Under the pieces are notes generated by a model. That model saw only the letters and a program-made list of their open reading frames with translations. It had not been told where the DNA came from and ran no database searches. The position numbers were made by a program, and so were the translations under genes. A stretch of 64,000 nucleotides of DNA, from the NCBI GenBank assembly GCA_019637355.1, contig JAHBVT010000001.1, positions 1,829,192 through 1,893,191 of the forward strand, given 5' to 3'. Position 1 is the first letter of the stretch, and each line of letters starts with the position of its first letter. The stretch comes from Gemmatimonadaceae bacterium. GTDB lineage: Bacteria; Gemmatimonadota; Gemmatimonadetes; Gemmatimonadales; Gemmatimonadaceae. Shown here in pieces: positions 38,177 to 49,920 of this stretch.

Positions 38177-38647
38177 ATGCGACTCATTATCGCGTATCTC
38201 ACCGTATTCCTCGCCGCCCTGTTGTATGCGGTGTACGCCGATCTGGCCGAGCTCCTTCCCGCTTGGCTGAGCTCGCAGGCGAGCGCCTTCCGGTGCGTGA
38301 TTGCCGGTGGTTTCGGCGGCCTACTGTATTTGACGCGAGCCATATACATCAATCGCGCCGTCAAGAAGCAGTGGGACTCCTCGTGGCACGTCTGGTACTA
38401 TCTCCGCCCCGCCGCTTCACTGATGTCCGGGGGCGTCGCCTATCTCTTCCTTTCCGCGGGACTCTTGGTACTCGGTGCCGAAGCGCGAAGTGAAGGCGGT
38501 TCACTTGGCTTCACCGCGCTCGCGTTCATCGCCGGACTCAATGTTGATCGATTCATTGAGAAGGTTGAAGATCTCGCTCAAGCCGCTTGGGGCATCAAAA
38601 AGTCGCGCTCCTCATCGGACAGCACGAGCTCCCGCGAGTCGCAATGA
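38177..38647 (+). CDS. Small membrane protein paired with MBL-fold protein
   Basis: 156 residues with three or four hydrophobic helices (LIIAYLTVFLAALLYAVYA; CVIAGGFGGLLYL; VAYLFLSAGLLVLGA; LGFTALAFIAGL) and a short charged tail. No known family is recognised. Its ATG-stop junction (ATGA) overlaps the next gene, which encodes an MBL-fold hydrolase, so the two form a tight pair. First gene of the lower-GC island; the membrane protein may anchor or be the effector of the hydrolase. Confidence 0.7.
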   Translation: MRLIIAYLTVFLAALLYAVYADLAELLPAWLSSQASAFRCVIAGGFGGLLYLTRAIYINRAVKKQWDSSWHVWYYLRPAASLMSGGVAYLFLSAGLLVLGAEARSEGGSLGFTALAFIAGLNVDRFIEKVEDLAQAAWGIKKSRSSSDSTSSRESQ

Positions 38648-39642
38648 GTGCCGTGCATCTTCTCAACGTCGGCCCTGGCGACTGCACCGTTATTCAGCAT
38701 GCCAGTGGACGCGTGTCATTGCTAGATATTTGCTGTGCCAACGCTCAGCGCACCCACGCGCGCGTCAGCATGGCCAAGATCTTCGAATCAGTTGCGGCTG
38801 GCGGCAACTTTCGCATGTGCGACTCGAAGGAGCAGCCGCTCGACTACCTGCAACGATTGGGGGTGTCACGGATCTGGCGCTTCATCCTGTCTCATCCCGA
38901 CATGGATCACATGGATGGTTTAGCGGCTTTGCTTGACAACATTAGCGTGCAGCATTTCTGGGATTCTGGTGTCAGGCGGGCCGCGCCAGATTTCGCTCCT
39001 GGCTCTCCTTACCTCCAGGCCGACTGGGACGCTTACGAGGCGCTGATTTCTGGTTCGGGCAGTAGCATGGGCGCGCCGGTACAAACATTGGAGGTACTTG
39101 CTGGGAACCGCTTTTCTTTCGCGAACGAGCCCCCAGACTCGCACGATGGCATTTACATTCTTGCACCCGACAAGAGCCTGCGGGATCAGGCGAGCGCGTC
39201 CGAAGACGTGAATGATGGCTCCTACGCTTTGCTCTATCGGAGCAACGGTGGACGCATCGTGCTGCCAGGAGATGCGTACGATGACACGTGGCGTCACGTC
39301 ATCGACACTTACCGAACCGACGTGGCAGGGTGTGCCTTTCTTCTCGCACCACATCATGGTCGAGACTCCGCACGCTCATACGAGTATTTGGACGTCCTTC
39401 GCCCCGCTCTCACACTTATCGGCTGCGCCCCATCAGAGCACATTAACTACCACGCTTGGTACGATCGCGGCCTTGACTTCATCACGTCTAATCAGGCTGG
39501 CAACGTCGTTCTGCACACGGACAACGGACGCCTCAACGTCTTCATCGAGAATCGCAAGTTTGCCGCCAAGTACGTTGACGTAGACTCGACTCCAAAAGAC
39601 GCTCTCGGGCACTATTTCATCGGCAGTATTTCGGATAGATAG
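38644..39642 (+). CDS. MBL-fold hydrolase (ComEC/Rec2-like)
   Basis: 332 residues. LNVGPGDCTVIQ at the start and the metal motif SHPDMDHMDG (His84, Asp86, Asp88, His89), followed by IVLPGDAYDD and LLAPHHGRDS, are those of ComEC-type metallo-beta-lactamase domains found as stand-alone proteins in defence and competence contexts. The substrate is unknown; nucleic acid or a nucleotide is plausible. It overlaps the membrane-protein gene by 4 bases and is followed after 22 bases by an attC-like site. Confidence 0.85.
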   Translation: MSAVHLLNVGPGDCTVIQHASGRVSLLDICCANAQRTHARVSMAKIFESVAAGGNFRMCDSKEQPLDYLQRLGVSRIWRFILSHPDMDHMDGLAALLDNISVQHFWDSGVRRAAPDFAPGSPYLQADWDAYEALISGSGSSMGAPVQTLEVLAGNRFSFANEPPDSHDGIYILAPDKSLRDQASASEDVNDGSYALLYRSNGGRIVLPGDAYDDTWRHVIDTYRTDVAGCAFLLAPHHGRDSARSYEYLDVLRPALTLIGCAPSEHINYHAWYDRGLDFITSNQAGNVVLHTDNGRLNVFIENRKFAAKYVDVDSTPKDALGHYFIGSISDR

Positions 39643-39663: not shown

Positions 39664-39760
39664 CGCTTAACGAAGCTTGCTGCCGACGAGCGCAGGTGCG
39701 GTAGCGGTTGTGGGGCCTCGCCTTCATCTTCTGTAAGGTTTGGCGAGGCCCCACAACCGC
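39664..39760 (+). repeat. Left part of an attC-like hairpin with a 19-bp apical stem
   Basis: GCTTAAC (39665-39671, an RYYYAAC core), GCTTGCTGC (39675-39683), CGAGCGC (39687-39693) and then a perfect 19-bp inverted repeat (39704-39722 with 39742-39760). The partner arms GCGCTCG, CAGC..AAGC and GTTACGC occur 1.4 kb away at 41193-41220, beyond the IS110-family element. Confidence 0.55.
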
Positions 39761-42194: not shown

Positions 42195-42782
42195 CTACAC
42201 GTCACCAAGCAGAAGATCGAGATACGGCCCGTCCACGAGCCACCTGATGGGACGCTGTGTGAGCCCGTGATCCTGGAACAGAAAGCCATTCACTCCTAGG
42301 TACATCTCGGTTGGCCGCCGGCCTCGCCGTTGGACCGGCTCGGTTCCGACGATGAGTACGACTGGCTGTGGGGTATTCGCCTCGCCGCTTGCAGCCAGCG
42401 CTCTGTATGTCGACGCATCCGTTGGGCTCGGATGGGGGTCAGGTTCTGGGTGGCTGTGCCACTCCCCCAGGAAGTCGACGCAACCCTCGCTCGCCGAAGC
42501 GTGACGGTCTAGAAACGCCTGGCAGAACTCCCGATCACGGTTGAACGAATGTCGCGTGTGACGAGATTTCGGCCCGGGACCGCTTGCCGCTGTAACCACA
42601 AACGCATCGAGCCGAGAGTCCGAGAAGCCGACGAGAACCCCGCCGGTCTCTACTCCCGCCTTGCGCGCGACCTCAGTCTCGAACGTATGCCTCACGGATT
42701 CAAGTACGTAGAGGCGCGCAGCGAAAGGGGTCGGCGCGCTACGCCGGCTACTTCGACGGAATGGCAGCCAATGCACTGTCAT
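42195..42782 (-). CDS. JAB/JAMM-family metalloprotease (Cap3-like deconjugase)
   Basis: 195 residues. The catalytic set of an active MPN+ domain is complete: Glu45 in VETGGVLVG, then GEWHSHPEP with His109 and His111, and Asp122 after exactly ten intervening residues. Family members remove ubiquitin or ubiquitin-like proteins; in bacterial operons with E1/E2 proteins they process or strip the modifier. ATG at 42782 overlaps the E2-E1 stop by 35 bases; a GTG at 42815 would add 11 residues. Last gene of the five-gene minus-strand operon. Confidence 0.88.
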   Translation of the reverse strand: MTVHWLPFRRSSRRSAPTPFAARLYVLESVRHTFETEVARKAGVETGGVLVGFSDSRLDAFVVTAASGPGPKSRHTRHSFNRDREFCQAFLDRHASASEGCVDFLGEWHSHPEPDPHPSPTDASTYRALAASGEANTPQPVVLIVGTEPVQRRGRRPTEMYLGVNGFLFQDHGLTQRPIRWLVDGPYLDLLLGDV

Positions 42783-44757
42783 ACTCCGCCTGGTCTTCCT
42801 CCGAGAGCCCGCCACCCATCGCTTCGCCAGAACACACTGGGCACTCCGGATGCGGCCGGAACCCTCGTCGATCGATCGTCAACGGTGGAACCGGATACTT
42901 CGGATCAACGTCGCAGATCCGGTTGCCAGCGAAGACCCAGTGACTCTGATCATCCTCCAGCCGATCATGCACGACGTCGAGAGCCATCTCCACCACGATG
43001 TGCGCCGCCAGCGCGTTGGAATTGCCCGCACCTGGAAAGGCGGGGGTTGTGCAGCTCGCCTCGTAGAATGGCTCGCTGGTGCCAGCAGGCTGTCCGACAT
43101 ATCCCCACTCGCGCCTTCCATCGAGCTGCTCCTTCTCGAACAGACCGTTGCAGTACAAGCATGCCGTACGACCTGCGCGGTAGACAAATGCGCGAAGCAC
43201 CTGTGCTTCGCCCATCAGCCAGGCGTGCAGAACAGGGATCGCACGTGGCGCACGACGCGCCAGGTCATCGATGTGCGAGTCCGCCGCTTTGATCGCCACG
43301 GTCGCGATCACGAGCGCCGGCACGGTTGATGGATCAAGAATCATTCGATCGAAAGAGCCATCAGCCTGCCTAGTACCCAACTGCGGTGACACTGCAACGT
43401 GGGGGTTCGTCTCCATCAGGACCTGACGAATCGCCCGCACCTTGGCCTTCCCGATATCGGGGAACCGGGCCTCATGCCTGATCACGTTGCCGGGTGACAC
43501 CGAATCGGGATCAACCAGAACAACGTTTCCGGCCCCCATGGCCGCGAGGCTACGAGCCACCGTCGACCCGAGTGCCCCGACGCCAACGATCACGATTCTG
43601 GCTTCCGCTAGCGCTCTCGCCTGCTCGTTCGATGCGTATCGATTGCCAACTCGCCGCCGTAGATCCTCGGGGCGAACGAAATAGGACGGCACGCCCCGAA
43701 GCTCCACCTTCGACCAGAACTCGTGGCCAAGGAGCTTCGGGTTTCTGCGAACGTCCTTCCCCAACCTTGGCCACTCAAGGCTCACGACCAACCATTCGTA
43801 ATCCGGACCGTGATCGCTCGCACCGCGGCGGCAACGTTTGAACTCGAGGACGATCGGAAGAAAACCTCGCTGGCGAGCATGCTTGTCGAGCACCTGGCCG
43901 GCCATGGCTCTCCACTGCTCTCGCTTGATGTCGAGGTGTGTATCCAAAACCTCCTCGAAGCCAGCCAAATCGTGGAAGGGCGTCGGTTCCGCCTCGATGC
44001 GAAACCAAAGTGCCTCGACGTTACCAAACCTGTTCGCATTGACGGTGTTCTGATCGAGCCGGAGTGATCGCCAGAACTTCGTATTCTCGTCGCGAACCAC
44101 TGTTTCAGAGGTCTTGCCCCCCTTCCACCGCCGTTGCCCCGCGATTGCCAGACTCGGCTTCTCATCTGAATGCTTGTCCCATTCCAGCACGAGCGTGCCG
44201 TGCGAAGGCCCCCCGTGCTCAAGAGCATGACCGGGGATCAGGACCGTCCGAACAAATGCCGCTTCCGGTTCCAGATACGCCAGAAGTTCACCAGCGGGCA
44301 CCTCGTTGGCGAAGACCCCACTGACGTAGCCGCGAAACCAGTCCTCAGCACCCTCGATCGCCCGCTCGATGCCGTGACCAACAACCCAGGGTTCGAGCTC
44401 CTCCTGCATATAGCAAAGTTCTCCCGAAGGACCCGCCTGGTGCCGTTGGCGGCGAATCGCGACGTCAGATGGGCGAACCGCCAGCTTGTCAAACGGATAT
44501 GAGGGCGGATACGCGATCTCGACGTCAAATCCGTGCCAGGCAACTGGCCCCCCGGGTGCAGCCGCCTCCACGCGAATACGTCCGGACACGACAAGCTGGA
44601 CTGGCCCGTGGTCCTCCCATCGGCGAAACCGCGGCTGGAATCCCCTCCTGACCGCCAACCTATGCTCTCGCAAGAACACGCCGGGCAAGCGGGTCCACCA
44701 CGGCGCCGGAGTCGGTTCCGTGGCCGGGGCGGCACCGTTGGTGCCTGGTGCAGTCAC
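42748..44757 (-). CDS. E2-E1 fusion protein (ThiF/Cap2-like ubiquitin-type activation and transfer)
   Basis: 669 residues. Residues about 20-150 form an E2-like domain (VEIAYPPSYPFDKLAVRP, with the candidate catalytic Cys115 in SGELCYM). Residues about 160-375 are a linker region of unknown fold. From 387 the E1/ThiF domain begins: VIVGVGALGSTVARSL, LVDPDSVSPGNVIRHE with Asp416, a zinc knuckle formed by CLYC (533-536) and CPVC (639-642), and the candidate E1 cysteine Cys569 in EASCTTPAF. The domain order is that of CBASS Cap2. It should adenylate a small modifier and pass it to a target. MBL gene 18 bases upstream, JAB overlapping downstream. Confidence 0.9.
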   Translation of the reverse strand: MTAPGTNGAAPATEPTPAPWWTRLPGVFLREHRLAVRRGFQPRFRRWEDHGPVQLVVSGRIRVEAAAPGGPVAWHGFDVEIAYPPSYPFDKLAVRPSDVAIRRQRHQAGPSGELCYMQEELEPWVVGHGIERAIEGAEDWFRGYVSGVFANEVPAGELLAYLEPEAAFVRTVLIPGHALEHGGPSHGTLVLEWDKHSDEKPSLAIAGQRRWKGGKTSETVVRDENTKFWRSLRLDQNTVNANRFGNVEALWFRIEAEPTPFHDLAGFEEVLDTHLDIKREQWRAMAGQVLDKHARQRGFLPIVLEFKRCRRGASDHGPDYEWLVVSLEWPRLGKDVRRNPKLLGHEFWSKVELRGVPSYFVRPEDLRRRVGNRYASNEQARALAEARIVIVGVGALGSTVARSLAAMGAGNVVLVDPDSVSPGNVIRHEARFPDIGKAKVRAIRQVLMETNPHVAVSPQLGTRQADGSFDRMILDPSTVPALVIATVAIKAADSHIDDLARRAPRAIPVLHAWLMGEAQVLRAFVYRAGRTACLYCNGLFEKEQLDGRREWGYVGQPAGTSEPFYEASCTTPAFPGAGNSNALAAHIVVEMALDVVHDRLEDDQSHWVFAGNRICDVDPKYPVPPLTIDRRGFRPHPECPVCSGEAMGGGLSEEDQAEYDSALAAIPSK

Positions 44758-44775
44758 CGCGCGTGAGTAGTCGGC

Positions 44776-45804
44776 CTACGCGGTTGGGCTCTTGTCGCCC
44801 AATCGCGTACGAGACACGATTGAAGCCGCAGCCGCCTTCGCCTGCCCACCCTTACCTCCCGAACCCTTCTCCTTGTCCGGGCCAGGCAGTTCGTACTTCG
44901 ACTGAAAGACCGCATCGTCCATGGACCACGTCATCTTGCCGGCTTCGTCGATCGTAAGAACGACGGTCAGGTGCTTATCGGTCCTAAACGTGTTGGCCTC
45001 GGTCACGTGCTTCTTGTACAGCCTGAGTGCGTCGGCGTGGGGGTGACCGTGGCTGTTGTCGGCGCCAACGGAAATCACGAGGTGAGAGGGCGACATTGCC
45101 TCCATGTGCTCCTCCCACGACTCATCCTCTTCCTTCTTCTTCTTGAAGAACGTTCGCGACCCGTGGTGGCTGACCTGGAGGACGTCCACGCCCAAGAGGC
45201 CATCGCGATCGTAGTGCTTTGTGATGCTCTCCCAAGCACCCTTGTTTGTATCGCCGGTGATCATGACGCTCTTGCCGCCGAAGGAGACCTTCATCGCGAT
45301 GCACTCGTTGTGGATCGCCTCGCGTTTTTCCTCTGACGCCTTGTCCTTGTCGAGCTTGACGTAGGAGCTGGGTCGGAAGATGTGAAAGCTTGCCCCGTCG
45401 ATCTCGGCGAACGCATCGGCGCATGCGCACACCTTCTTCGCCTTGTCTCCGAGATCCTTGATCAGCCCCTGGAGCTCATCATAGTTCGGGTTTTCACCCT
45501 TCTCGCAGTCGAGCTCGTGTCCCGAGTGCCACATTTCGTCGATCTCGAAATCCTTCCGGAGATCGGCCACGCCGCAGATGTGGTCGTCGTGCGGGTGGGT
45601 GTTCACGAAATAGGCCAGCCTGCCTTTCTTTCCGCTCTTCGCGGGAAGCGTGTCGGAGAGGTAGTCGATGACGTTGATGCCTTTGTTCTTCCGATCGAGG
45701 TTGATGTCGACGACCATATGCTTGCCATTCGGCAGCACGATGTGCGTGCAATCACCCTGGCCGACGTTGAGGAACTTGAACTTGATCTCTTTCTTGGCGC
45801 TCAT
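44776..45804 (-). CDS. MBL-fold hydrolase (ComEC-type)
   Basis: 342 residues. KFLNVGQGDCTHIVLPNGK starts the fold; NTHPHDDHICG gives His70, His72, Asp74 and His75; SVMITGDTN and LQVSHHGSRTF complete a two-metal site. A Lys/Gly-rich tail ends the protein. GGGGAGG just upstream supports ATG at 45804. The sequence differs clearly from the other ComEC-type MBL protein at 38644. Its place between the LRAT-like gene and the E2-E1 gene makes it a core part of the operon; the substrate is unknown. Confidence 0.88.
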   Translation of the reverse strand: MSAKKEIKFKFLNVGQGDCTHIVLPNGKHMVVDINLDRKNKGINVIDYLSDTLPAKSGKKGRLAYFVNTHPHDDHICGVADLRKDFEIDEMWHSGHELDCEKGENPNYDELQGLIKDLGDKAKKVCACADAFAEIDGASFHIFRPSSYVKLDKDKASEEKREAIHNECIAMKVSFGGKSVMITGDTNKGAWESITKHYDRDGLLGVDVLQVSHHGSRTFFKKKKEEDESWEEHMEAMSPSHLVISVGADNSHGHPHADALRLYKKHVTEANTFRTDKHLTVVLTIDEAGKMTWSMDDAVFQSKYELPGPDKEKGSGGKGGQAKAAAASIVSRTRLGDKSPTA

Positions 45805-45853
45805 GCGAACCTCCCCTACGAATTTGGGGGTTGAGGTTGGGAGAAATCGGCGG

Positions 45854-46276
45854 TCAGTCACCGGCAAGCAGCCATGCGAGGCCTACAACCGCCGCGGCGA
45901 CACCGGAGGCCTTCGCCAGTTGCGGACTTCGTCGGACACCCGTGGCAACATGAGCCACGAAGTGCTCGCAGTTGTTTCCGAACAGGTTGTAGCGCGGGGT
46001 CCGCAGAGCCTCGACGAGCCGCCGTCGCGCGCTCACCAAGTCGTGAATTCGACCGACCGACTCCCAAGGACCTGTTTGCGAAAGGGGCTGTGCCTGTAAA
46101 CCGCTCGGAGGCTGATGGATGATCATCGGCTCCGCGCCGGGCGGCAACTGAAGACCGAGCATGTTGCCCACGTCGAGGATACCGAAGTGGAAGACGCCCT
46201 TGTCACGTCGAAACTGACGGACGACGAAGAGCCCAAGAGACGCGGCGGGTCGTGGTGCGTACGACACAGTTCTCAC
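45854..46276 (-). CDS. LRAT-like papain-fold protein with membrane tail
   Basis: 140 residues. His30 in VFHFGIL and Cys103 in NNCEHFV match the His and Cys of the LRAT/NlpC-P60 circularly permuted papain fold; NCEHF is the LRAT-type signature. A hydrophobic helix near the C-terminus (GVAAAVVGLAWLLAG) would anchor it to the membrane, as in LRAT proteins. Possible reactions are acyl transfer, phospholipid hydrolysis or thiol peptidase action. The GTG start overlaps the DUF2188 stop (GTGA). Confidence 0.75.
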   Translation of the reverse strand: MRTVSYAPRPAASLGLFVVRQFRRDKGVFHFGILDVGNMLGLQLPPGAEPMIIHQPPSGLQAQPLSQTGPWESVGRIHDLVSARRRLVEALRTPRYNLFGNNCEHFVAHVATGVRRSPQLAKASGVAAAVVGLAWLLAGD

Positions 46277-46500
46277 CCCTTGGGCGGGAATTTGTCGGGC
46301 CCGTAGCTGTTCTTCTCCCGGATCTGCCCGTTGCGCCCGTGGATGAAGTGCTCCGACTTCTGGTCTCGCGCAATCGAGCGGCCGGAGCGAGCGGCGGCGT
46401 CCTGGGTCCGGTGGGTCACTCCTGTCGGCTTACCGCCGACGCGGTTCACCCACCCGTTCCCAGCCGGATTCGGCGTCGTGTGAACGTCCTTCTTGGCCAT
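46273..46500 (-). CDS. DUF2188 small protein, first gene of the E2-E1 operon
   Basis: 75 residues: NGWVNRVGGKPTGVTHRTQ, then the helix QDAAARSGRSIARDQKSE, HFIHGRNGQIREKNSYG and the end PDKFPPKG, all typical of DUF2188. A strong AGGAGG-containing site precedes ATG 46500. Function is unknown. It is compact, beta-alpha in character and ends in glycine, so it deserves testing as a conjugated modifier or a substrate of the operon's E1, but the PPKG end is common in DUF2188 proteins generally. Confidence 0.85.
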   Translation of the reverse strand: MAKKDVHTTPNPAGNGWVNRVGGKPTGVTHRTQDAAARSGRSIARDQKSEHFIHGRNGQIREKNSYGPDKFPPKG

Positions 46501-46823
46501 AACCCTCCCTCCTGCGTTAGAGAAGCGCAGTCCGGATCGGGAGGGTCCTTCAGTCGCTGATCGGCGCTGAGTACACGCCGGTAAGTGCTTCGGTCGGTCC
46601 GGTCCGAGGAGCTGCTGCCTCGGTTGTGTTTCCCTCCACGCCTCGACGGTGGCGGGGGAGTAAATATAATTCATTCGCGAGTCTAGGCAAGCCCTATTCT
46701 GCCGAGGGAGTTGCCCGGCGCGTGCTTGGAAACAAGTTTCCCATATCGGCCTCCGAGCTGGACAACAATGTGATGTGGCAGTCCGTCCGCAACACCTCTC
46801 GACCTGGCCCCCCCCCTTTCAGC
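46501..46823. other. Divergent regulatory region
   Basis: 323 bases between the DUF2188 operon and the divergent membrane-protein gene. It holds the operon promoter at 46662-46690 and about 155 bases of leader without a gene. The right side may encode part of a longer N-terminus of the membrane protein, because its frame is open from 46626. Confidence 0.6.
46662..46690 (-). promoter_or_regulatory. Promoter of the DUF2188-LRAT-MBL-E2E1-JAB operon
   Basis: On the minus strand TTGCCT (46690-46685), a 16-base spacer and TATATTT (46668-46662). This AT-rich patch stands out from its surroundings. Confidence 0.6.
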
Positions 46824-47513
46824 ATGATCGACCGCTACGACCGCGTCGCACGCGTTTATCCGGCAATTCTGAGCTCGCTGCCGCTGCTCCTGCTCAACTA
46901 CTTCCTTTTGCGGCTCCACCTCGGCCCGCTCCTCGACGATTTCGCAAAGGCGAAGTGGCCAGGTGGTATCGCAATCACAGTGGTCGCGATGTATCTCCTC
47001 GCGCAGGCCGCTCGGATCGTTGGCAAGGAGTTGTTCGAGGATACGGTTTTCGAGAACGAGACTCGGATGCCAACCACTGAGCTTCTCCTGCACGGCAATT
47101 CAGGCCTGTCAGCCGAACACCGCGCGCAGATTCATGTACGCCTCGCGCACGACTTCGACCTACACCCTTTCGGGCCTGATCGCGAGCGATTGGACGAACT
47201 CGGCGCTCGGAGGATATTGGTCGACTGCGTCCGCCAGATGCGAAGAAAAGTCGGCAACGGGCGTCTCCTCCTGAAGCACAACAGTGAGTACGGGTTCATT
47301 CGCAATCTGGCAGGTGGCGCGCTCCTCGCCTCCGTGATTAGTCTGGTCGACCTTGCTCTCTTCGGCTCTGTGTGGCCCAACACGCTCGCCTATTCGCTCT
47401 CGTTGGCGCTTGCGGTGTCCTACGTCATCGTTATGGCTTCTGCCCGGCCGCTGATGCGCCGGCTGGGGCATCGCTACGCTCTCGTGCTAATGCAGGAGTA
47501 CCTCGGAACCTGA
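46824..47513 (+). CDS. Four-helix membrane protein divergent from the E2-E1 operon
   Basis: 229 residues, no named family. Two membrane helices near the start (YPAILSSLPLLLLNYFLLRL; GGIAITVVAMYLLAQAAR), a soluble region of about 100 residues with LLLHGNSGLSAEHRAQI and RRILVDCVRQMRRKVGNGR, then two more helices near the C-terminus. ATG at 46824 begins a compact N-terminus; longer starts at 46773 or 46626 are open but look less natural. Because it sits head-to-head with the conjugation operon, it could be a membrane-disrupting effector. Confidence 0.65.
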   Translation: MIDRYDRVARVYPAILSSLPLLLLNYFLLRLHLGPLLDDFAKAKWPGGIAITVVAMYLLAQAARIVGKELFEDTVFENETRMPTTELLLHGNSGLSAEHRAQIHVRLAHDFDLHPFGPDRERLDELGARRILVDCVRQMRRKVGNGRLLLKHNSEYGFIRNLAGGALLASVISLVDLALFGSVWPNTLAYSLSLALAVSYVIVMASARPLMRRLGHRYALVLMQEYLGT

Positions 47514-48826: not shown

Positions 48827-49333
48827 TTGGCGACGGCCACAGTGAATCACAACCCCCTCGCGGAAATGCTCGGAGCCGCCGCGACCTTCATACACCCCTG
48901 TCCTCGCAGCCTGGGCAGCGTGGTTCGGCACGAGACGCGCCGAACCACGTATCGATGGCAAAAGGCGCTGCAGCACCGTACGTGCTGGTACCGACGCATG
49001 CTTCACCACCTCGTTGAGTTCAAGAGTGCGGTGGCGAAGTACCCAACACGTCGAGCACCAAGCGACCACGAGCAGGAGCACTATTCCCGCGCAGTGCATC
49101 GCCTCATCCACTACTCCGGACTCTCGGCGCTGTATGCGGGACCGCCGACCCATGCAGCGGTCTGGGACCTGCGCTTCGCCTTGGAAGAGATCGAGGGACT
49201 GAAGCAGCTCATCGAGCCGGCAACTGAGCTTGAAGCGGCACTCAATGTCACTCAGCGCGCAATCGACCACGTATGCGGCGAGGGGCGCGCGCTCATCGGT
49301 ATCCCCTCGCTGCCATCGAGTGCTACCGAATGA
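48827..49333 (+). CDS. Hypothetical protein
   Basis: Up to 168 residues, helical (WDLRFALEEIEGLKQLIEPA near the C-terminus), with no family recognised. The start is unclear: TTG at 48827 and GTG at 48842 are options, neither with a good ribosome-binding site. The end overlaps the next gene by 4 bases, which supports expression as part of the group. Confidence 0.5.
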   Translation: MATATVNHNPLAEMLGAAATFIHPCPRSLGSVVRHETRRTTYRWQKALQHRTCWYRRMLHHLVEFKSAVAKYPTRRAPSDHEQEHYSRAVHRLIHYSGLSALYAGPPTHAAVWDLRFALEEIEGLKQLIEPATELEAALNVTQRAIDHVCGEGRALIGIPSLPSSATE

Positions 49334-49920
49334 GCCTGAGCAACCTGCTATCCGGCATTCTCGGCGCTGTGCTTGGATCCCTCGCTTCGTTCTGCGCGGT
49401 ACTCCTCGACCACAAGTTGCGCGCGCGGTCAGAACAGAAGCGTACGCTCAACAGCATTCTGCGGGAGATCGGGATAGTGCGGCGATCGCTGGAGCGCTGG
49501 ATCGAGAAGCGACAGGGGGGCGTGAGCTGGAAGGAGGGCTGCCCCGCCGGCGTCCGTCCGTACCTGCAAGTCGCCGAACGGCTGCCGGTCGAAGTCTCGG
49601 AACTGCCGACTGCGGTGGGCCGGCAGATCGAAGCCGTTGAGCTCAAGCTGACAATCTTCTGCGCGGCGTGCACCGAGGAGTTTGAGCGGCGCCTAACGAC
49701 AGAGAATCCGCTCGCGCACATCGCCGAGAACGAAGCCGGCATCCAGCGGGTGGTGCGGCTCGGAGAGCACGCCGTGGCCGCGATCCGACTCGCCGAGAAG
49801 ACGTGCACCGAGCAGTGGGATGCGTGGCAGGTCCCGTTCTACAAGCGGCCAATCAGCCTTCGCGCAGAGGTGTCGAACTACCAAGGCCCGCGACGGCTGC
49901 CCGGGTACGACAATGACTGA
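49330..49920 (+). CDS. Hypothetical membrane-anchored helical protein
   Basis: 196 residues: an N-terminal hydrophobic helix (LLSGILGAVLGSLASFCAVLL) followed by a helical, charged cytoplasmic part (RTLNSILREIGIVRRSLERW; EAVELKLTIFCAACTEEFERR). No family recognised. ATG overlaps the previous stop (ATGA). Last of the four-gene group. Confidence 0.6.
   Translation: MSLSNLLSGILGAVLGSLASFCAVLLDHKLRARSEQKRTLNSILREIGIVRRSLERWIEKRQGGVSWKEGCPAGVRPYLQVAERLPVEVSELPTAVGRQIEAVELKLTIFCAACTEEFERRLTTENPLAHIAENEAGIQRVVRLGEHAVAAIRLAEKTCTEQWDAWQVPFYKRPISLRAEVSNYQGPRRLPGYDND

What the first reader, a model, noticed from the sequence alone, without database searches (positions are those of the whole stretch)
42195..46690. 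Five-gene operon: DUF2188, LRAT-like, MBL hydrolase, E2-E1 fusion, JAB peptidase
The sequence shows one promoter followed by five tightly packed minus-strand genes that include a complete E2-E1 fusion (candidate Cys115 and Cys569, adenylation loop, zinc knuckle) and an active-looking JAMM peptidase. The Cap2/Cap3 pair is known from type II CBASS, and E1/E2/JAB operons with MBL proteins have been noted by comparative genomics. Here there is no CD-NTase, no SAVED or Cap4-type effector and no recognisable ubiquitin-like gene; instead an LRAT-like enzyme and a DUF2188 protein take part. That composition could be a distinct antiphage or stress conjugation system.
Basis: partly seen in the sequence, partly recalled or inferred. 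Interest (0 to 1): 0.85.

Follow-up and report, generated by a model that had tools for sequence, protein, structure and literature searches.

The report
Ubiquitin-like machinery for a nuclease-like protein
A bacterium carries a small gene set in which a ubiquitin-style enzyme pair probably attaches a nuclease-like enzyme to other proteins through a conserved tail; this resembles a known antiviral system but uses a different protein as the attached part.

Summary
The five genes are real, at the stated coordinates, but are not one conserved five-gene system. The conserved core is MBL–[E2-E1]–JAB, present in every independent locus read with a full-length E2-E1 relative (Gemmatimonadota, Bacteroidota, Paenibacillus, one viral-collection contig). 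LRAT and DUF2188 accompany none of these; they occur as a pair elsewhere in a related genome. A sixth, missed gene probably belongs: a divergent four-TM protein (46824–47513 +) whose few relatives sit in MBL or E2-E1-JAB loci. Key finding: the ComEC-like MBL ends in a conserved tail (window SRTRLGDKSPTA; others TRLDxxPMG, some with 2–4 extra residues), present in 7/7 MBLs beside E2-E1 and in neither of two related MBLs without E1. Best reading: the MBL itself is conjugated through its C-terminus, as the CD-NTase is in type II CBASS, with JAB trimming or deconjugating. MBL–E2–E1–JAB operons have been known since 2006 (type 6a); the tail, split JAB, TM partner and DUF2188–LRAT addition make this a new variant. 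Conjugation, nuclease activity and antiphage function are inferred; no bench data. Prior description of the tail cannot be excluded, since key papers were not held.

The parts
46824..47513 (+). 229-aa protein with four predicted TM segments, divergently transcribed; probable partner of the MBL
   Evidence: Relatives at E<=1e-6 in only 3 of 295 same-class genomes (itself, MBL locus of G091, E2-E1-JAB locus of G067) and in 1 of 72,556 plasmids, the Runella MBL operon (32% identity, E 7e-37); hydropathy
46643..46690 (.). overlapping divergent sigma-70-like promoter sites (TTGCCT-16-TATATT on -, TCGACG-16-TATAAT on +)
   Evidence: consensus match only
46273..46500 (-). DUF2188 protein (75 aa), ends ...FPPKG; accessory, not part of the conserved core
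   Evidence: Pfam E 6.6e-17; PADLOC PDC-S16 E 1.5e-24
45854..46276 (-). LRAT/PLAAT-like protein with NNCEHF motif and C-terminal TM segment; accessory, candidate membrane-lipid effector
   Evidence: Pfam LRAT E 2.5e-5; HRASLS2 chain by sequence E 0.0035; TM 120-138
44776..45804 (-). ComEC-like MBL hydrolase (342 aa), metal-ligand residues intact; probable conjugated protein
   Evidence: ComEC/competence structures E 1e-17 and 2e-15; adjacent to E2-E1 in all full-length loci
44779..44814 (-). C-terminal tail SRTRLGDKSPTA, predicted E2-E1 substrate
42748..44757 (-). E2-E1 fusion (669 aa), Cap2-like; E2 Cys115, E1 Cys569, Cys533/536 and 639/642
   Evidence: Pfam ThiF E 1.2e-20; PADLOC E1-E2 E 7e-26; best Foldseek matches 7tqd/7to3 Cap2
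42195..42782 (-). JAB/JAMM peptidase, Cap3-like, motif intact
   Evidence: Pfam Prok-JAB E 3.4e-12; PADLOC JAB E 9.7e-26; start codon inferred from the sequence

Best explanation
The conserved unit is a ubiquitin-like conjugation module whose modifier is the ComEC-like MBL protein itself. E1 adenylates the MBL's C-terminal tail (ending TRLGDKSPTA), passes it to Cys569 and then to E2 Cys115, and the MBL is attached to target lysines. JAB trims the tail where residues follow the final Gly and removes the MBL from conjugates. The divergent TM protein is its membrane partner. Conjugation probably activates or positions the MBL nuclease, or the MBL/TM pair, during infection or stress, as Cap2 does for the CD-NTase in type II CBASS. 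DUF2188 and the LRAT-like membrane enzyme form an added accessory pair. Shown here (sequence only): gene order, intact catalytic residues, tail conservation and its co-occurrence with E1, TM association, separability of DUF2188-LRAT. Inferred: conjugation itself, nuclease activity, antiphage role, effector roles of TM and LRAT.
For: Tail motif T-[RQ]-L-(G)-D near the C-terminus in 7/7 MBLs beside E2-E1 (window, L022, L023, Paenibacillus, two Hymenobacter, L046) and absent from two MBLs without E1 (Runella, L045) that branch inside the same family. Background: apart from these MBL copies, 2 of about 2,070 ORFs of >=150 aa in the loci carry it in the last 25 residues. In the three Gemmatimonadota copies the last 12 codons show 6-7 synonymous against 1-3 nonsynonymous changes per pair, while the preceding linker is 26-50% identical with indels. 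The end residue is Ala, or Gly after trimming, the same terminal residues conserved in type II CBASS CD-NTases (PMC10097602). The best structural matches of E2-E1 are Cap2. The MBL's closest solved relatives are ComEC MBL domains. PADLOC lists related MBLs as defence components or candidates (PDC-M48B, LmuA, RTasMBL).
Against: No biochemistry. Only seven tail-bearing loci, in two clades, so fewer independent events. Whether Runella and L045 lost tail and E1 together, or never had them, is not resolved by the tree (open forks). Three tails have extra residues after Gly and need processing that is only predicted. The tail could serve recognition or localisation without being conjugated. The E2-E1 model is low confidence (pLDDT 60). 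No phage-protection data; related Bub operons have not been shown to protect against phage (PMC13373217).
Confidence: 0.66

Rival explanations
1. DUF2188, whose C-terminus is a conserved Gly, is the conjugated modifier and the MBL is an ordinary effector.
For: It ends ...PPKG; 79 of 80 related loci encode a protein ending in Gly; it is the first gene of several E2- or E1-containing immune operons on plasmids.
Against: Absent from the core loci of both close relatives and the other core loci. The Gly tail is kept in 80 viral-collection loci with no E2-E1, JAB or MBL relative nearby. The model is b-b-b-a-b-b, not the ubiquitin order, and the listed PDB matches are not ubiquitin-like.
Confidence: 0.08
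2. The MBL tail is a docking or regulatory peptide for E2-E1 or JAB; the true modifier is encoded elsewhere or is another substrate.
For: The tail tracks the presence of E1 but no thioester has been seen; three tails carry residues after the Gly.
Against: No other small or tailed protein was seen in all seven loci; conservation runs to the final residue in four of them and ends in Gly or Ala; direct parallel with CD-NTase tails.
Confidence: 0.17
3. All five genes plus TM form one obligate, distinct system with LRAT as effector and DUF2188 as leader.
For: Tight co-directional packing; in Alphaproteobacteria DUF2188 also precedes a phospholipase and then a CD-NTase, the same order as DUF2188-LRAT-MBL.
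Against: LRAT and DUF2188 found with none of the other core loci; a DUF2188-LRAT pair occurs without the core.
Confidence: 0.09

Closest known systems
MBL + E2-E1-JAB operons, type 6a of Iyer et al. 2006 (PMC1779556)
   Same: E2, E1, JAB and a neighbouring metallo-beta-lactamase protein; the Hymenobacter, Paenibacillus and L046 loci found here fit it directly
   Different: JAB is a separate, overlapping gene in the window and its two close relatives; DUF2188-LRAT added; a TM partner and the MBL tail are not described in the passages read
Type II CBASS (CD-NTase, Cap2, Cap3)
   Same: Cap2-like E2-E1 and Cap3-like JAB; candidate target protein with a conserved C-terminal Ala/Gly
   Different: No CD-NTase; a ComEC-like MBL takes its place
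[quoted passage not shown]
   Same: Apparently the same class
   Different: Mentioned in one phrase there; no tail, TM or mechanism in the passages read. Related papers by that group were not held, so prior description cannot be excluded
PADLOC candidate PDC-M48 (A + B)
   Same: Related MBL (PDC-M48B, E 9e-11); the Hymenobacter TM protein matches PDC-M48A weakly (E 1.3e-4)
   Different: The window TM protein does not match PDC-M48A; E2-E1-JAB added
Bil (ISG15-like) and Bub systems
   Same: E1/E2/JAB conjugation (from general knowledge and PMC13373217)
   Different: No ubiquitin-like protein found in this operon

Membership tests
Type II CBASS | CD-NTase in the operon | tested here: not met
   None adjacent; Pfam SMODS absent from own genome and both relatives (does not cover every CD-NTase clade)
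Type II CBASS | Cap2-like E2-E1 and Cap3-like JAB | tested here: met
Type II CBASS | Conjugated protein with conserved C-terminal Gly/Ala | tested here: inconclusive
   MBL tail has it; conjugation itself not testable here
Iyer 2006 type 6a operon | MBL gene next to E2 + E1 | tested here: met
   PMC1779556
Iyer 2006 type 6a operon | E2, E1 and JAB in one polypeptide | tested here: not met
   JAB separate in window, L022, L023; fused in L031, L033, L046
PADLOC PDC-M48 | MBL component B | tested here: met
   E 8.7e-11; no PADLOC cut-off shown
PADLOC PDC-M48 | TM component A | tested here: not met
   No hit for 46824-47513
Bil/Bub conjugation systems | Ubiquitin-like (beta-grasp) protein in the operon | tested here: inconclusive
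   None by Pfam; DUF2188 model not in ubiquitin order
Antiphage defence system | Protects a host from phage | not testable with these tools
   needs plaque assays

The most novel reading that the evidence does not exclude
A nuclease effector is itself the protein modifier: E2-E1 covalently plants an active ComEC-like nuclease on phage or host proteins, so conjugation aims the effector directly with no second messenger, and JAB matures and recycles it.
Probability: 0.3. Interest if true: 0.85.

Novelty: new variant of a known kind. Interest (0 to 1): 0.62.

Why it matters
MBL-E2-E1-JAB operons have been listed since 2006, and the passages read name no modifier for them. A conserved MBL tail that tracks E1 gives a direct, cheap test: remove one residue and look for loss of conjugates. 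If true, Cap2-type enzymes conjugate more than CD-NTases, and ubiquitin-like transfer in bacteria extends to nuclease-type effectors.

Tried and rejected
DUF2188 as ubiquitin-like modifier: rejected as main reading (tail is family-wide, gene absent from relatives, fold order differs). LRAT as core component: rejected (no plasmid hit; four genome relatives, none with MBL or E2-E1). A lost CD-NTase: no trace in relatives or genome. Viral-contig scans with window E2-E1, window DUF2188 and the Hymenobacter/Paenibacillus E2-E1-JAB gave no relatives; the single genome-contig scan returned only the two loci already known. A common TM family for all loci: not supported; window/Runella/L023/L054 and Hymenobacter/L045 are separate by sequence. 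VIA-align did not list Cap2 among its shown rows and mostly spans the E1 half. No Rfam match, no tRNA near. The 2023 Cap2 paper and the 2025 bacterial ubiquitin-like protein paper were not held.

Full report
What is there. The five minus-strand genes are at the stated coordinates and closely packed. Pfam gives DUF2188 6.6e-17, LRAT 2.5e-5 (only 22 profile positions matched), Lactamase_B 8e-6, ThiF 1.2e-20 and Prok-JAB 3.4e-12. A sigma-70-like site precedes DUF2188, overlapping one for the opposite strand. The window lies in a 3.1 Mb assembly whose relatives with this module are Gemmatimonadota.

Full-length E2-E1 relatives in the same phylum are few: 53% identical in G254 and 38% in G091, among 298 genomes. 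A separate profile search with the MBL in 394 same-class genomes returned the same three genomes. In G254 and G091 the order is MBL-E2E1-JAB, with neither LRAT nor DUF2188 in the 19 kb read. G254 has two partial DUF2188 matches on other contigs. More distant loci keep an MBL directly upstream of E2-E1: Paenibacillus polymyxa plasmids, Hymenobacter swuensis and H. volaticus plasmids (the H. volaticus E2-E1-JAB reads as frame-broken pieces) and one IMG/VR contig (L046). In these the JAB is fused to E2-E1, the type 6a arrangement of Iyer et al. 2006 (PMC1779556). In the Gemmatimonadota copies JAB is split off.

LRAT and DUF2188. LRAT relatives occur in 4 other genomes of the 295 searched, none beside MBL or E2-E1 within the stretch read. 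In one (G143) LRAT lies directly after a DUF2188 gene, as in the window. The pair is therefore separable from the core. DUF2188 itself is common, in 45 of 246 same-class genomes.

The tail. MBL sequences end as follows: window SRTRLGDKSPTA, G254 SKTRLGDKSPTA, G091 SRTRLGDVSKTA, H. swuensis GTRLDDKPMG, H. volaticus GTRLDKQPMGTEHE, P. polymyxa KTQLDRKPMGGQ, L046 ATRLDQRPMGLE. Two MBLs of the same family without an E1 neighbour, Runella and L045, lack the motif. In a tree of the domain without tails they branch with the Hymenobacter/Paenibacillus/L046 group (89/95 support for that group of six; inner forks open). Within the three Gemmatimonadota copies, tail identity is 9-13 of 14, domain identity 52-57%, and the linker between them 26-50% with gaps; the last 12 codons show 6-7 synonymous and 1-3 nonsynonymous differences per pair. 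So selection holds the extreme C-terminus. The motif within the last 25 residues is rare otherwise: 2 other ORFs of about 2,070. Type II CBASS CD-NTases end in conserved Gly or Ala and are conjugated through it by Cap2 (PMC10097602). The parallel suggests that the MBL is the conjugated protein; this step is inference.

Enzymes. E2 Cys115, E1 Cys569 and the Cys pairs 533/536 and 639/642 are invariant among relatives. Foldseek ranks Cap2 first, but the model is weak (pLDDT 60.5, pTM 0.52), and VIA-align rows mostly cover the E1 half. The E2 assignment therefore rests on Foldseek, weak Pfam hits in relatives and the conserved Cys. The MBL matches ComEC MBL domains best and keeps the HxHxDH and other ligand residues in all nine sequences. 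That ComEC MBL domains act as nucleases is from general knowledge, not tested here.

The sixth gene. The divergent 229-aa protein (46824-47513 +) has four hydrophobic segments. Its relatives at E<=1e-6 in 295 genomes are itself, one in the G091 MBL locus, and one beside a 1096-aa E2-E1-JAB-patatin protein in G067. Its only plasmid relative is in the Runella MBL operon. In that operon the MBL is followed by an SEC-C protein with a weak UEV-domain match and a GTLCL motif, then by this TM protein. Other MBL loci carry other TM proteins; the Hymenobacter one matches PADLOC PDC-M48A weakly, and the MBLs match PDC-M48B.

DUF2188 in other operons. On plasmids DUF2188 is the first gene of CBASS operons (L042, L044, L146), a multiubiquitin-E2-ThiF operon (L148) and TIR loci (L147, L150), usually beside HTH or HTH + ImmA/IrrE regulators. 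These were chosen by similarity, not at random; other DUF2188 loci stand alone. Its model resembles AcrIF5 (Z 5.4, rmsd 2.8, 60 aligned) and YegP (Z 4.2, rmsd 3.1, 56 aligned), both modest. PMC13373217 reports YegP relatives after CapK-CapS regulators in 57 cases. This hints at a shared role for small proteins of this shape as leaders of damage-induced operons; no test was possible.

Verdict. Not a distinct five-gene system, but a variant of a known and poorly understood class, with a specific testable proposal for its modifier. Prior description of the tail cannot be excluded, because the closest papers were not available.

Noticed in passing
L055-L134 (IMG/VR) and window 46273-46500: 79 of 80 DUF2188 loci end in Gly, mostly GNDPxPPKG, at nearly fixed length, without E2-E1 relatives nearby. 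Such a conserved free C-terminus is unexplained.
   Followed up: partly
L042, L044, L146, L147, L148, L150: DUF2188 is the first gene of CBASS, TIR and multiubiquitin-E2-ThiF operons on plasmids, usually beside HTH or HTH+ImmA/IrrE regulators.
   Followed up: partly
window 46273-46500: The DUF2188 model resembles anti-CRISPR AcrIF5 and YegP, at modest scores.
   Followed up: partly
L140:6383-7162: DUF2188 and LRAT genes adjacent without MBL or E2-E1.
   Followed up: partly
L054:5763-9050: Single 1096-aa protein with E2, E1, JAB and patatin phospholipase domains, beside a distant relative of the window's TM protein.
   Followed up: partly
L032:5995-8446: Runella plasmid operon MBL + E2-like SEC-C protein + TM protein without E1, resembling an E2-only version of the system.
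   Followed up: partly
window 38587-39642: A second ComEC-like MBL gene about 2.5 kb beyond JAB, past an IS110 transposase, without the tail.
   Followed up: no
window 39704-39760: Perfect 19-nt inverted repeat with a 19-nt spacer.
   Followed up: no
window 49273-49920: 215-aa protein with a weak PADLOC CARF-HEPN match (E 0.0067).
   Followed up: no
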